A DNA stretch of 64,000 nt, taken from the NCBI GenBank assembly GCA_000612485.1, contig CP007494.1:2232001-2296000 (forward strand). The letters run 5' to 3'. A model generated the notes under the pieces. It saw only the letters and a list, made by a program, of their open reading frames with translations, did no database searches and was not told where the DNA came from. This document shows, in pieces, positions 12,701-62,850 of this stretch (positions are counted from its first letter, which is position 1; each line of letters opens with the position of its first letter). This stretch comes from Bordetella holmesii ATCC 51541 (GTDB taxonomy: Bacteria > Pseudomonadota > Gammaproteobacteria > Burkholderiales > Burkholderiaceae_B). The translations under genes and the position numbers were made by a program.

Positions 12701-13732
12701 ATGCCTGAGTTCCACCTGTTTGCTCGCCGCGCTTTGAGTCTGCTGGCCCTGGCTGCGCGGCGCCCGCGATGGCGAAACAGACCACGTTGACGGTTTACAC
12801 CGCTCTTGAAGCCGACCAGATCAAGGCTTATCAGGCTGCCTTCGAGCGCGAGTATCCTGATATCAAGATCCAATGGGTACGCGACTCCACCGGCATCATC
12901 ACCGCCAAGTTGCTGGCCGAAAAGAACAATCCCAAGGCGGATGTGATCTGGGGGCTGGCCGGAACCTCGCTGGGTCTGATGGACAAGGAAGGAATGCTGC
13001 AACCCTACGCCCCCAAAGGCCTGGACCAGATTTCCCCCACCATGCGCGACGCCAAGGAGGTGCCAGCCTGGGTTGGCATGGATGCCTTTGCAGCAGCTAT
13101 CTGCTTCAACACCATCGAAGCCAAGAAGCAGAATCTGCCCGAGCCAAAGTCGTGGCAGGACCTCACGCGCCCCGAGTATGCGGGCAAGATCGTCATGCCC
13201 AATCCGGCTTCTTCCGGCACGGGTTTTCTGGACGTCAGCGCTTGGCTGCAAATGTTTGGAGAAGAAAAGGGTTGGGCCTTCATGGACGCCTTGCACAAGA
13301 ATATCGGCAGCTATACGGATTCCGGCTCCAAACCGTGCAACCTTGCCGCCTCGGGTGAGTTTCCGATCGGAGTGTCCTTCGACTATCGTGCGGCCAAGCT
13401 CAAGGCCGAGGGCGCTCCGATACAGCCGGTTTTCCCAAGCGAAGGGCTGGGCTGGGAAGTCGAGGCGACCGCTATCGTGCGCGGCACCAAGAACATGGAG
13501 GCCGCGCAAAGTGGCTGACTTCTCCGCCAGTCGCGCGGCCAATGAGCTTTACAAGACCAATTTTGCGGTCCTGGCCATCCCCGCGGTGGCGACATCCAAT
13601 CCCAATCTGCCTGCCGATCTGGCCTCGCGCATGATCAAGAACGATTTCGTGTGGGCGGCCACGCAACGCGAACCCATCTTGGCTGAATGGACCAAGCGCT
13701 ACGACAGCAAGTCCGAACCGAAGAAGAAGTAA
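12701..13732 (+). pseudogene. phnS: 2-aminoethylphosphonate ABC transporter substrate-binding protein, two frameshifts
   Basis: Periplasmic binding protein of the PhnS/FbpA-like class. A signal peptide (MPEFHLFARRALSLLALAA) lies in one frame; the mature part (TLTVYTALEADQIKAYQAAFEREYPDIKIQWVRDSTG to GTKNMEAAQ) lies in a second; the C-terminus (VADFSASRAANELYKTNFAVLAIPAVATS to SEPKKK) lies in a third. Shifts fall near 12757, where one G would restore AAAAPAMA, and near 13510 next to an A-run. Joined, it gives about 344 residues, the normal length. Each shift is of the kind a sequencing error can produce. Confidence 0.85.
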
Positions 13733-13786
13733 AACGTCAGGGGCGCGCAGGGTGCGCGCCCGTCTGCTGCCTTGAGAGATAGTGCA

Positions 13787-14914
13787 ATGAAATCATTTGA
13801 TGTGGTGGTCATCGGTGGCGGCATCCTCGGGATGGCGCATGCGTGGGCCAGCGCCCGCCGCGGGCTTTCCGTTGCGGTGGTCGAGCGCGCCCGTCAGGCG
13901 CATGGTGCCACCATCCGGAATTTTGGCCAGGTACTGGTGACGGGGCAGGCTCCTGGCGACATGGCCAATCTCGCCAGGCAGACGCGTGCCTTGTGGCTGC
14001 AACTGGCCGGCCAGGCCGGTTTTCATGTCAGGGCGAACGGCTCGTTGGTGCTGGCGCGTACGGCTCAGGAAAGCGATGTGCTGGAAGAGTTCGCCAGCCA
14101 TCGCCTGGCGGCCGAGGGTTACGCCGCGCGACTGCTCAGCAATCGCGAGCTCGCCGCCTTCTATGGGGGGCGTCTGGAGCACCATTGCGCGGCCTTGCGC
14201 GGAGAGGACGACCTGCAGATTTACTCACGCGAAGCGCTGCCTGCCATTACCCGTCATCTGGGCGACGACCTCGGCGTGGCGATGATTCACGGCACGCTGG
14301 CGCGCAAAGTCGAAGGGGGCGAAGTCGACACCACGGCGGGCCGGTTCAAGGCAGGCCATGTATTCGCCTGTCCGGGACATGACTATCTGATGCTGTGGCC
14401 GGAAATTTTCGCGCCGCTGAACCTGGAACTCTCTCGCCTGCAAATGCTGCGGGTGGCATTTGTCGAACAGGCGTTCGAGGTTGATATGCCGCTGCTCACG
14501 GGGCTGTCCTGCGTGCATTACGGTGCGTTCTCGGACCTGCCCAGCGCGCAACGTCTGCGGCAGACCTTCGAGCAGCACAGCCCGTTCCTGATGCGCGAAG
14601 GTATACATTTGTTGATCAGCCCAACGCCGTATGGGGAGTTGATCGTGGGCGATTCGCATCGTTATGGCGTCGATGCGTTGCCGTTCAACGATGAGGCCGT
14701 CGATGAGACGCTCCTGAGCCTGGCGCAACAGGCGCTTGGTGCGCGCCTGCTGGTGCTGGAGCGCTGGCAAGGTGTCTATGGCGCTCATGGCCCCGCACCG
14801 TATTCGGTCTTGCAGGCCGATACCCAGACCACGGTGTCCGTCATGCATTCGGGTGTGGGCATGACGGTGGGCCTGGCCATAGGCGAGCGGGCCGTGGCGG
14901 CTGCTCTGGGGTGA
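13787..14914 (+). CDS. FAD-dependent amine oxidase of phosphonate clusters (TIGR03364-like)
   Basis: 375-residue DAO-family flavoprotein: N-terminal FAD-binding SFDVVVIGGGILGMAHAWASARRGLSVAVVER, then HGATIRNFGQVLVTGQ, and a C-terminal MHSGVGMTVGLAIGERA. Family members occur in 2-aminoethylphosphonate operons and have been proposed or shown to oxidise aminophosphonates or their N-methyl forms to phosphonoacetaldehyde, the PhnX substrate. No PhnW transaminase is seen, which fits this enzyme supplying the aldehyde (inference). Start ATG 13787. A hairpin GGGCGCGC/GCGCGCCC lies in the gap upstream, near 13740-13761. Confidence 0.8.
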   Translation: MKSFDVVVIGGGILGMAHAWASARRGLSVAVVERARQAHGATIRNFGQVLVTGQAPGDMANLARQTRALWLQLAGQAGFHVRANGSLVLARTAQESDVLEEFASHRLAAEGYAARLLSNRELAAFYGGRLEHHCAALRGEDDLQIYSREALPAITRHLGDDLGVAMIHGTLARKVEGGEVDTTAGRFKAGHVFACPGHDYLMLWPEIFAPLNLELSRLQMLRVAFVEQAFEVDMPLLTGLSCVHYGAFSDLPSAQRLRQTFEQHSPFLMREGIHLLISPTPYGELIVGDSHRYGVDALPFNDEAVDETLLSLAQQALGARLLVLERWQGVYGAHGPAPYSVLQADTQTTVSVMHSGVGMTVGLAIGERAVAAALG

Positions 14915-60268: not shown

Positions 60269-60277
60269 CTGCCGCGC

Positions 60278-62850
60278 TCAGCCTTTTTCGGCAACGCGCT
60301 GAGCAATGTGAGCCAGCGCTTCTTCGACCTGATCGACCAGGATCAGACACAGATCGCCTGGCGCCAGACGTTGCAGTGCGCGGTCGATGGCAACGAATTC
60401 GCCGCGGATTTCCTCGATGTGAGACGCGCGGCTGGCCTGGGTCAGTCCCTGCCGCAGCAAAGCGATCACTTCGCCATCTTCGCGCCCACGTTGGCACTGG
60501 TCTTCGTAGAGCAGCACGTCGTCGAAATGCTCGCCCAGGATTTCGGTCTGCTGGCGCAGATCCTCGTCGCGGCGGTCACCTGCGCCACTGATGACGACAC
60601 TGCGGCGCTTGGCCGGCATGGCGTCGACTGCGGTGACCAGAGCCTGGATCGCGTCCGGGTTATGGCCATAGTCGGCGATCAGCGTGGCACCGCCGTAGTC
60701 GAACACGTTGAAGCGCCCCGGGGCGGTTTGCGCGTCATTGACGAATGTTGCCAGCGCCTGCCGGATCGTGCCCCAGTCCAGCCCCAGCGCCCAGGCGGCA
60801 CCGACGCAAGCCATGGCATTTTCCACCTGGAAGGTGATGGTGCCGTTGCGCGTAAGGGGGATATCGGCCAGAGGGATGAGGACTTCGTGGCTGCCCTCGG
60901 CGGCGACGATGCTGTCGCCCTCGCGATACACCACGCGTTTGCCCTGGGCGCGATGGGTGCTCATGAGGGAGTGATTGCGGTCTTGGGCAAAATAGGTGAC
61001 GTCGCCGGGGCAGGCGCTGGCCATCTCGGCGACGTGCGCGTCGGCGGCGTTGAGCACGGCCATCCCTTTGCTGCGCACGTACTGCACGATGACCCGTTTG
61101 ACCACGGCCAGGTCTTCGACGGTGCTGATATAGCCCAGACCCAGGTGGTCGCCCATGCCGATATTGGTGACGATGGCCACGTCGCACCGGTCAAACGCCA
61201 GCCCTTCGCGCAAGATGCCTCCGCGTGCGGTTTCGAATACGGCTGCGTCCACATCGGGATGCAGCAGAATGCGCCGGGCGCTGCGCGGACCACTGCAGTC
61301 ACCGGTGTCGATGCGGCGCTTGCCCACATAAACCCCATCGGAATTGGTCATGCCCACGCGGTTGCCGGCGCAGGTCAGGATATGCGCCGACAGACGCACG
61401 GTAGTGGTTTTTCCGTTGGTGCCAGCCACGGCGATAACCGGGATGCGGGCATCGTCGCCCTCGTCGAACATCTGACCGATGATGGCCTCGCCTACTGCGC
61501 GCCCCTTGCCGAAAGACGGGTTCAGGTGCATGCGCAGGCCCGGTGCTGCATTGACCTCGACCACGCCGCCGTGTTGTTCTTCCAAGGGCAGATGGACGGT
61601 CTCGGCCACGACATCAACACCGCAGATATCCAGGCCGATCATGCGGGCGGCCGTGACGGCACGTGCGGCCAATTCGGGGTGGACCTCGTCGGTGACGTCG
61701 GTCGCCGAGCCTCCGGTGCTCAGGTTGGCATTGTTGCGTAACACCACCAGGGCGCCGGCCGGCGGCGTGGACTCGGGCGTATAGCCCTGCTTGTTCAGCA
61801 CGCCCTGAGCGATGTCATCCAGACGGATCTTGGTCAGAGCCGTGGCATGCCCGTCGCCGCGCAGGGGGTCGGTGTTGACCTGCGCGACCAGTTCGCGAAT
61901 GGTGTGCACGCCGTCGCCGGTGACTTGGGGCGGGTCGCGGCGCGAGGCTGCCACCAGTGAGTTGCCCACCACCAACAGGCGGAAGTCGTGACCAGGGATG
62001 TAGCGCTCGACAATGACTTCGGAGCTGATCTGTGAGGCGGCTTCAAAGGCGGCCAGCACACGTTCACGCGTCTCGATGTTGACCGCAACGCCGCGCCCCT
62101 GGCTGCCATCGCGCGGCTTGACCACGACCGGTCCGTTAAGATCCTGGGCCGCCTCCCAGGCGGCTTCGGCATCCTCCACGGAGCGGCCAAGCGGCACCGG
62201 TACCCGGCCGCATCCAGTAGCATCTTGGTGAGGTCTTTGTCCTGCGCGATGGATTCGGCGATGGCGCTGGTGCGGTCGGTTTCGGCGGCCTGGATACGGC
62301 GCTGCCGGCTGCCCTAGCCGAATTGCACCATGCTGCCCTGAGTCAGCCGGTGAAACGGAATGCCGCGCGAGGTCGCCGCCGTGACGATGGAACCGGTCGA
62401 CGGGCCCAGGCGCACATCTTCGTCGAGTTCGCGTAAGCGGGCCAGGGCCTGGGGCAGATCAAAAGGCAGGTCCAGTCGGGCGGACTCAAGCAGTGCCTGA
62501 GCCAGCTCCATGGCCAGGCGGCCAACCTCTTCTTCGCTGTATTCGACGACGACCTGAAACACACCCGGTTCGATGGTCGTCGAGGTGCGGCCAAACGTTA
62601 CAGGGCAGCCGGCATGGGCTTGCAGGGCCAGGGCGCAGGCTTGCAGCACATGGGCCAATGAAACGGACCCGCTGTGCCCTTCGGGCAAAAGCAGGCCGAT
62701 CTGGGGAAAACGCGCGCGCAACCTCGCCTCGAAGTCAGGCATGTTGTCGATAGAGCATTCATTGTCGGCGCAGGCCGCAATGGCTTCTATGGCGGTATTA
62801 CGGCTCCAGAGGTTGGGGCCTCGCAAAACGCGGATTCGGGAGACTTCCAT
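60278..62850 (-). pseudogene. cphA: Cyanophycin synthetase, with nonsense codon and frameshift
   Basis: ATP-dependent polymerisation of aspartate and arginine into cyanophycin; about 857 codons. N-terminal domain (MEVSRIRVLRGPNLWSRNTAIEA to GSMVQFG) ends at an in-frame TAG (62314-62316) where the family has an aromatic residue; reading continues GSRQRRIQAAETDRTSAIAESIAQDKDLTKMLLDAAG. The frame then shifts at the CCC run 62213-62215 (plus strand), giving VPVPLGRSVEDAEAAWEA in a new frame. ATP-grasp region (VVVKPRDGSQGRGVAVNI) and Mur-ligase-like domain (VAGTNGKTTTVRLSAHIL) are otherwise intact. AGGAAAG ribosome binding site before ATG 62850. Confidence 0.92.

What the first reader, a model, noticed from the sequence alone, without database searches (positions are those of the whole stretch)
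12701..62316. Frameshifts share a one-base homopolymer-loss signature
About sixteen frame breaks hit fourteen genes. In at least ten, restoring one G or C to a short run rejoins the protein with a family-like sequence at the join: receptor (17336), maeB (20167), OPT (25923), sucA (27956), lpdA (31808), fecR-like (35694), pgeF (49153), phaC (51065), ftrC (54210), cphA (62213), plus the phnS signal peptide (12757). Central genes are hit as readily as dispensable ones and the changes are nearly all losses. That pattern suits uncorrected long-read error at least as well as genome decay.
Basis: partly seen in the sequence, partly recalled or inferred. Interest (0 to 1): 0.75.

Follow-up and report, generated by a model that had tools for sequence, protein, structure and literature searches.

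The report
False gene breaks from sequencing errors
Most of the clean one-base gene breaks in this stretch look like mistakes in the published genome record of the type strain of Bordetella holmesii, laid over some real gene decay, so its genes should not be called dead before the reads are checked.

Summary
Against a close congener, 14 of 45 comparable genes in the window carry 17 frame shifts; 11 are net one-base losses, 9 of them clean (pgeF). The listed phnS site is a two-base gain. The window lies in CP007494.1, Bordetella holmesii ATCC 51541, a PacBio RS / HGAP 1.4 assembly. In 170 genes (186 kb, 11 regions) two relatives agree on 33 minus-type, 4 plus-type and 7 stop lesions. The 25 clean one-base losses all border a G or C run in the record, 24 of them 3 or longer. 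The same lesion splits the only copies found of rplE, alaS, murD and murG, which a living cell should need. For both window genes that could be tested, otherwise identical sequences from other assemblies lack the loss; in one of them a more complex lesion further on is shared. So clean minus-one breaks are probably mainly consensus errors (about 500 genome-wide by extrapolation), while stops, complex indels and multi-lesion genes are mainly real decay. The kind of artefact is known. Only reads can settle each site.

The parts
16191..18412 (-). TonB-dependent siderophore receptor gene, one clean net minus-one frame change; intact copies exist in the same species
19863..22141 (-). NADP-dependent malic enzyme (maeB), one clean net minus-one frame change
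   Evidence: intact in both congeners
25208..27249 (+). OPT family oligopeptide transporter, one clean net minus-one frame change
   Evidence: seen against G006 only, no G001 orthologue in the fetched stretch
27590..30456 (+). 2-oxoglutarate dehydrogenase E1 (sucA), one clean net minus-one frame change
   Evidence: 98% identical to congeners otherwise
31767..33190 (+). dihydrolipoyl dehydrogenase (lpdA), one clean net minus-one frame change near residue 13
   Evidence: seen with both congeners, left out of the 44 concordant events because it is within 40 bases of the gene start
38876..40486 (+). PepSY-associated TM helix protein gene: one clean minus-one change near residue 110 (private to this record) and a later complex lesion (shared by other assemblies)
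48762..49522 (+). pgeF (peptidoglycan editing factor family), net minus-one frame change
   Evidence: clean against G001, untidy against G006
49651..51272 (+). class I PHA synthase (phaC), net minus-one frame change, untidy alignment: undecided
53772..54613 (+).
60281..62850 (-). cyanophycin synthetase (cphA): an internal stop (residue 179) and a clean net minus-one change (residue 217): mixed
34994..35926 (+). FecR-like gene with a plus-type and a minus-type change, both untidy: undecided
   Evidence: G006 only
11877..12666 (+). phosphonoacetaldehyde hydrolase gene with a complex lesion: probable real decay
   Evidence: G006 only
12701..13729 (+). 2-aminoethylphosphonate-binding protein gene (phnS2 model): net gain of two and later loss of two bases; not the one-base class
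   Evidence: G006 only
38591..38876 (+). small gene of about 98 codons with a loss of eight bases: probable real decay
18507..19812 (-). ISL3 insertion element, 23-base imperfect terminal inverted repeats
   Evidence: absent from the same place in G006 and G001
57525..58830 (-). second ISL3 insertion element, same terminal repeats, ISL3 transposase
   Evidence: absent from the same place in G006 and G001

Best explanation
The window is part of CP007494.1, the complete record of Bordetella holmesii type strain ATCC 51541. Its clean one-base losses beside G or C runs are mostly consensus errors of a PacBio RS / HGAP 1.4 assembly that was not fully corrected: the consensus calls a run one base too short, more often the longer the run, and each miscall inside a gene splits one reading frame into two. 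These false breaks lie over real reductive decay of B. holmesii (stops, complex and multi-base indels, several lesions in one gene, ISL3 insertions). Shown: the signature, the split essential genes, unbroken otherwise identical copies for two window genes, the identity of the record. Inferred: that most of the other clean losses are errors too, and the mechanism of miscalling; no reads were seen.
For: Identity of the record. Minus-type excess: 33 minus, 4 plus, 7 stop in 170 genes; controls between congeners near parity. Of 36 aligned frame events 25 are single one-base deletions, none a single insertion. 25 of 25 have G or C as the longest bordering run in the record, 24 of 25 three or longer; loss per G/C run rises from 0.15% to 20% with remaining length 3 to 6 or more, none scored at 611 A/T runs of 4 or more. 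Essential genes split, no second copy found: rplE, alaS, murG, murD. Other assemblies: P0001 unbroken, 658 of 659 aligned residues identical; P0116, in 73 contigs including one as long as the complete genome of strain 44057, 388 of 388 identical, without the one-base loss. Rate 0.134 per kb, close to 561 single-base homopolymer deletions in about 3.2 Mb of another PacBio consensus (PMC4888979).
Against: PMC5624759 calls the work a hybrid of HiSeq and PacBio data, and another PacBio RS I/HGAP genome had very few such errors (PMC4134206). At the aligner's first gap placement the missing letter lies in a run of 3 or more in the relative in only 6 of 25 cases and is A/T in 10 of 25, and in only 10 of the 16 cases clean against both relatives do the two agree on the letter; the run context rests on the record's own bordering runs. 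Clean losses lean to diverged genes (15 seen, 9.4 expected, P = 0.055; conserved genes 4 against 7.3, P = 0.15), so some may be real. Real slippage also favours such runs (general knowledge). Only 2 window losses could be tested in other assemblies; a third search, for murG, gave no B. holmesii copy. The general spectrum of run lengths shows no shortage of long G/C runs.
Confidence: 0.9

Rival explanations
1. Genuine pseudogenes: B. holmesii is a recently emerged, host-restricted species with genome reduction through insertion elements, and the one-base losses are real slippage mutations.
For: PMC5045587 (passages) describes large-scale gene loss and many IS copies. Stops, complex and plus-type lesions are depleted in conserved genes (1 seen, 8.1 expected, P = 0.003). 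The later lesion in the gene at 38876-40486 is shared by other assemblies. Clean losses lean to diverged genes.
Against: Single-copy rplE, alaS, murD and murG are split the same way; two of two tested window losses are absent in otherwise identical sequences. This rival holds for the other lesion classes, not for most clean losses.
Confidence: 0.07
2. The sequenced culture really carried many one-base losses, for example as a mismatch-repair mutator or after long laboratory passage.
For: PMC5454989 (passages) reports that bvgA of ATCC 51541 differs by one base between sequencings. A UvrD-like helicase gene is itself split in the record.
Against: mutS is a single open frame. A mutator should also gain bases, but single one-base insertions are 0 of 25 clean changes. 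Loss of essential genes would be lethal.
Confidence: 0.02
3. The short runs are real and slippage of RNA polymerase or ribosome restores the frames.
For: The breaks border homopolymer runs and include genes a cell should need.
Against: 14 of 25 remaining runs are only 3 or 4 bases long, and other sequences of the species encode the two tested frames unbroken, so no rescue is needed.
Confidence: 0.01

Closest known systems
Single-base homopolymer deletions in PacBio consensus (Enterococcus faecium ATCC 700221, PMC4888979, passage seen)
   Same: Single-base losses in homopolymer runs of a PacBio consensus; 561 in about 3.2 Mb (0.176 per kb) against 0.134 per kb here.
   Different: There they were found and mostly corrected with Illumina reads; here they stand in a public record and are inferred without reads.
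False pseudogenes from assembly error (PMC11017572 abstract; Kastor, PMC12007338 passages)
   Same: Frame breaks put into genes by sequencing or assembly; deletion errors at homopolymers dominate in the Kastor case.
   Different: The Kastor example (MinION) had more A/T than G/C runs; here the bordering runs are G or C.
Genome reduction in Bordetella holmesii (PMC5045587, passages)
   Same: Accounts for ISL3 copies and for stops, complex indels and multi-lesion genes.
   Different: Does not account for clean one-base losses in single-copy essential genes.

Membership tests
Uncorrected long-read consensus errors | One-base losses at homopolymer runs dominate | tested here: met
   25 single deletions, 0 single insertions of 36 aligned frame events; 24 of 25 border a run of 3 or more in the record, null 43%; by the relatives' letters alone only 6 of 25
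Uncorrected long-read consensus errors | Strikes genes the cell cannot lose | tested here: met
   rplE, alaS, murD, murG split, no second copy found; essentiality itself is general knowledge
Uncorrected long-read consensus errors | Independent of gene importance once run lengths are allowed for | tested here: inconclusive
   Conserved genes 4 seen, 7.3 expected, P = 0.15; diverged genes 15 seen, 9.4 expected, P = 0.055
Uncorrected long-read consensus errors | Absent from other assemblies of the same clonal species | tested here: met
   2 of 2 window losses that gave a same-species sequence; a third search (murG) gave none
Uncorrected long-read consensus errors | Long-read assembly | tested here: met
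   HGAP 1.4, PacBio RS with HiSeq; no polishing step described (PMC5624759)
Uncorrected long-read consensus errors | Reads disagree with the consensus | not testable with these tools
   No reads on hand
Genuine pseudogenes | Lesion shared by other strains | tested here: not met
   Not met for the two clean losses tested; met for the later complex lesion at 38876-40486
Genuine pseudogenes | Sparing of conserved genes | tested here: inconclusive
   Met for stops, complex and plus-type lesions (1 against 8.1, P = 0.003); not significant for clean losses
Programmed or phase-variable frame shift | Frame break kept in the species | tested here: not met
   Unbroken otherwise identical sequences exist for both genes tested

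The most novel reading that the evidence does not exclude
A share of the short G/C runs is real in the type strain, essential genes included, and the frames are kept alive by slippage in transcription or translation, so that this bacterium lives with hundreds of one-base losses.
Probability: 0.02. Interest if true: 0.8.

Novelty: not a real feature. Interest (0 to 1): 0.22.

Why it matters
CP007494.1 is the complete record of the type strain and stands for the species in the one-genome-per-species set searched here. If the clean losses are mostly errors, there may be about 500 in the genome (321-733, extrapolated from coding sequence; 51-478 from conserved genes alone). Pseudogene counts, inferred losses of metabolism and allele schemes drawn from it would then be wrong, and real decay in an emerging pathogen overstated. 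The tests used here (single-copy essential genes, rise with run length, other assemblies of a clonal species) can separate error from decay without reads.

Tried and rejected
Run-length spectrum of 684 kb of the own genome against relatives, to look for a general shortage of long G/C runs: no clear difference (9 kb lie in two stretches and were counted twice). Search with the murG fragment for an intact B. holmesii copy: 7 proteins listed, 81-90% identical, none of this species, so no answer. Plasmid search of the sucA-lpdA region: no close relative. G002 as a third relative: 60 kb fetched, used but not in the concordance counts. The 18 evenly spaced own stretches (L131-L148) served only for the run spectrum, because their orthologues were not fetched. 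Frame events seen with one relative only, or within 40 bases of a gene end, are not among the 44 concordant events; so OPT, lpdA, phnS2, the phosphonatase gene and the FecR-like gene are outside that count. One frame event (of 37) gave no usable DNA alignment. Of the 36 genes with a concordant break, 19 have one clean loss only, 1 has several clean losses, 4 are mixed and 12 have no clean loss. The region labels ileS, valS, leuS, metS and efg2 in my scripts are my own guesses from family hits. 'Every break is an error' was rejected (shared lesion, stops, gradient with conservation); 'every break is decay' likewise (essential genes, unbroken otherwise identical copies). Searches were script failures, repeated after correction.

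In print: searches (9 of 9 listed; 20 of 24; 3 of 3; 15 of 407) showed, in titles and abstract starts, no paper saying that CP007494.1 has homopolymer errors; unlisted papers were not seen. PMC5454989 (passages) reports one-base differences between this strain's record and other sequencings, without calling them errors. Papers seen: PMC5624759 whole main text; PMC5054321 main text and most of the references (part 1 of 2); PMC5389834, PMC5045587, PMC5454989, PMC12007338, PMC4134206 and PMC4888979 passages; PMC11017572 outline, abstract and one reference passage; PMC2225982 outline and abstract. Others only as listings.
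Full report
Where the window comes from. The window is G000:C1:2232001-2296000 of a single contig of 3,699,674 bases. That is exactly the length published for Bordetella holmesii ATCC 51541, CP007494 (PMC5624759, Table 1). Two ORFs, lpxA and lpxO1, lie at the very coordinates printed for CP007494.1 in PMC5454989. The B. holmesii recA primers and probe of PMC5389834 lie in order in one 2-kb stretch. PMC5624759 describes HiSeq 2000 and PacBio RS data assembled with HGAP 1.4, and no polishing step. 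A later genome, H903, was Illumina-polished (PMC5054321).

Checking the observation. I compared the window with orthologous stretches of two congeners, G006 (Bordetella genomosp. Against G006, 14 of 45 usable genes carry 17 frame shifts, and cphA also an internal stop. Eleven of the 17 are net one-base losses; 8 are clean against G006, and pgeF is clean against G001. The listed phnS site is not of the class: it is a net gain of two bases, with a loss of two further on.

Is it more than chance? I added ten regions fetched around rpoB, four hits of the tRNA-synt_1 family, four hits of the GTP_EFTU family, and the mur cluster. With the window this gives 170 genes and 186.4 kb in which both relatives have the gene. 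Lesions on which both agree: 33 minus-type, 4 plus-type, 7 stops. The same method between the two relatives gives 8 minus, 6 plus, 7 stops in one direction and 13, 10, 12 in the other, over about 223 kb each; own against each relative gives 49, 9, 16 and 42, 9, 18. So the excess lies chiefly in minus-type changes. Of 36 frame events with a usable DNA alignment, 25 are single one-base deletions against at least one relative (16 against both) and none is a single insertion.

Run context, for and against. At the aligner's first gap placement the missing letter, read from the relative, lies in a run of 3 or more in only 6 of 25 cases and is A/T in 10; where the loss is clean against both relatives they agree on the letter in 10 of 16. 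But the relatives differ from the record at many third positions, so the record's own bordering runs say more: at that same placement 23 of 25 border a run of 3 or more; with the gap free to slide within one mismatch 24 of 25, against 43% for random places with the same freedom, and 18 of 25 border 4 or more, against 18%. The longest bordering run is G or C in 25 of 25. Losses per G/C run rise with remaining length from 0.15% (3) to 1.1% (4), 4.7% (5) and 20% (6 or more); none is scored at 611 A/T runs of 4 or more, against 18 at 857 G/C runs (P = 1e-4).

Error or decay? First test: genes that should not be lost (essentiality is general knowledge). rplE (ribosomal protein L5) is split near residue 28, its two parts are 97-100% identical to congeners, and it is the only L5 match in the genome. 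alaS lies in two frames; the only other match is a weak partial one. murG lies in two frames with no other match (seen with G006, and one gap against G001). murD is broken once, near residue 47, and the Mur-ligase search gives eight matches in each of three genomes. mnmG and a UvrD-like helicase gene are hit too. On the other side, rpoB, the tRNA-synt_1 hits and mutS have open frames like those of the relatives. A cell with four such genes truly broken is not credible.

Second test: other sequences of the species. PMC5045587 gives a diversity of 0.00002 for B. holmesii, so other strains should match almost letter for letter. For the receptor, P0001 (660 aa, no source shown) matches both parts of the window at 658 of 659 aligned residues, with exactly one minus-one step between them; the one mismatch is the start residue. 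For the gene at 38876-40486, P0116 (389 aa, 73 contigs, the longest 3,697,138 bases, the published length of strain 44057) matches at 388 of 388, with exactly one minus-one step, and ends at the window's own stop behind the later complex lesion, where congeners go on to about 537 residues. So in one gene the clean loss is private to this record while the complex lesion is shared. That P0001 and P0116 are B. holmesii is inferred from identity and contig length. A third search, with murG, returned no copy of this species.

Third test: gene importance. Stops, complex and plus-type lesions are depleted in genes 95% or more identical to relatives (1 seen, 8.1 expected by length, P = 0.003). Clean losses, with expectation from run lengths, are not significantly so (4 seen, 7.3 expected, P = 0.15), though they lean to diverged genes (15 seen, 9.4 expected, P = 0.055). 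This fits a mixture: mostly error in the clean class, with some real slippage mutations among them.

Size of the problem. 25 clean losses in 186.4 kb are 0.134 per kb (95% interval 0.087-0.198), or about 500 in the genome (321-733) if other sequence behaves alike; conserved genes alone give 0.050 per kb (about 190; 51-478). A PacBio consensus of Enterococcus faecium ATCC 700221 had 561 single-base homopolymer deletions in about 3.2 Mb, 0.176 per kb (PMC4888979). Against this, a PacBio RS I/HGAP genome of E. coli EC958 was nearly free of them (PMC4134206), so the platform does not make them inevitable.

What is probably real in the window. Two ISL3 elements (18507-19812, 57525-58830) agree with the 78 ISL3 copies reported for the species. 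The cphA stop, the eight-base loss at 38591-38876, the phosphonate-gene lesions and the later lesion at 38876-40486 look like decay; only the last was tested in other assemblies. The FecR-like gene and phaC remain undecided.

Verdict. The artefact is of a known kind (PMC11017572 abstract; PMC12007338 passages).

Noticed in passing
window 52782-52790: A run of nine G between two genes, 52 bases before the ORF at 52842 that opens the iron-transport cluster; could be a variable tract, but one such run is expected by chance (1.16 in shuffles) and its length in this record is itself doubtful.
   Followed up: no
window 31916-31950: A 35-base stretch in lpdA occurs exactly in three plasmid records (Pseudomonas twice, Agrobacterium) and 34 bases of it in a Nonomuraea record, at places with no listed gene.
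   Followed up: no
window about 42197-42229: G006 holds about 1.45 kb here that the window lacks: a deletion in this lineage or an insertion in the other.
   Followed up: no
L108 and neighbours (G000 near 1,355,800): rpsC (S3) has a frame change near residue 230 of 263, seen with both relatives, but by a complex indel of net seven bases: perhaps a real change of its tail.
   Followed up: partly
G000 whole genome: The contamination estimate is 2.26% against 1 (rounded) in all 12 congeners listed at 99% completeness or more; split marker genes counted twice would raise it (inference).
   Followed up: no
G000 630144-630686 (outside the window): PMC5454989 (passages) reports a one-base length difference in a lipid A gene between CP007494.1 and three clinical isolates; given the errors found here, which version is right is open.
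   Followed up: no
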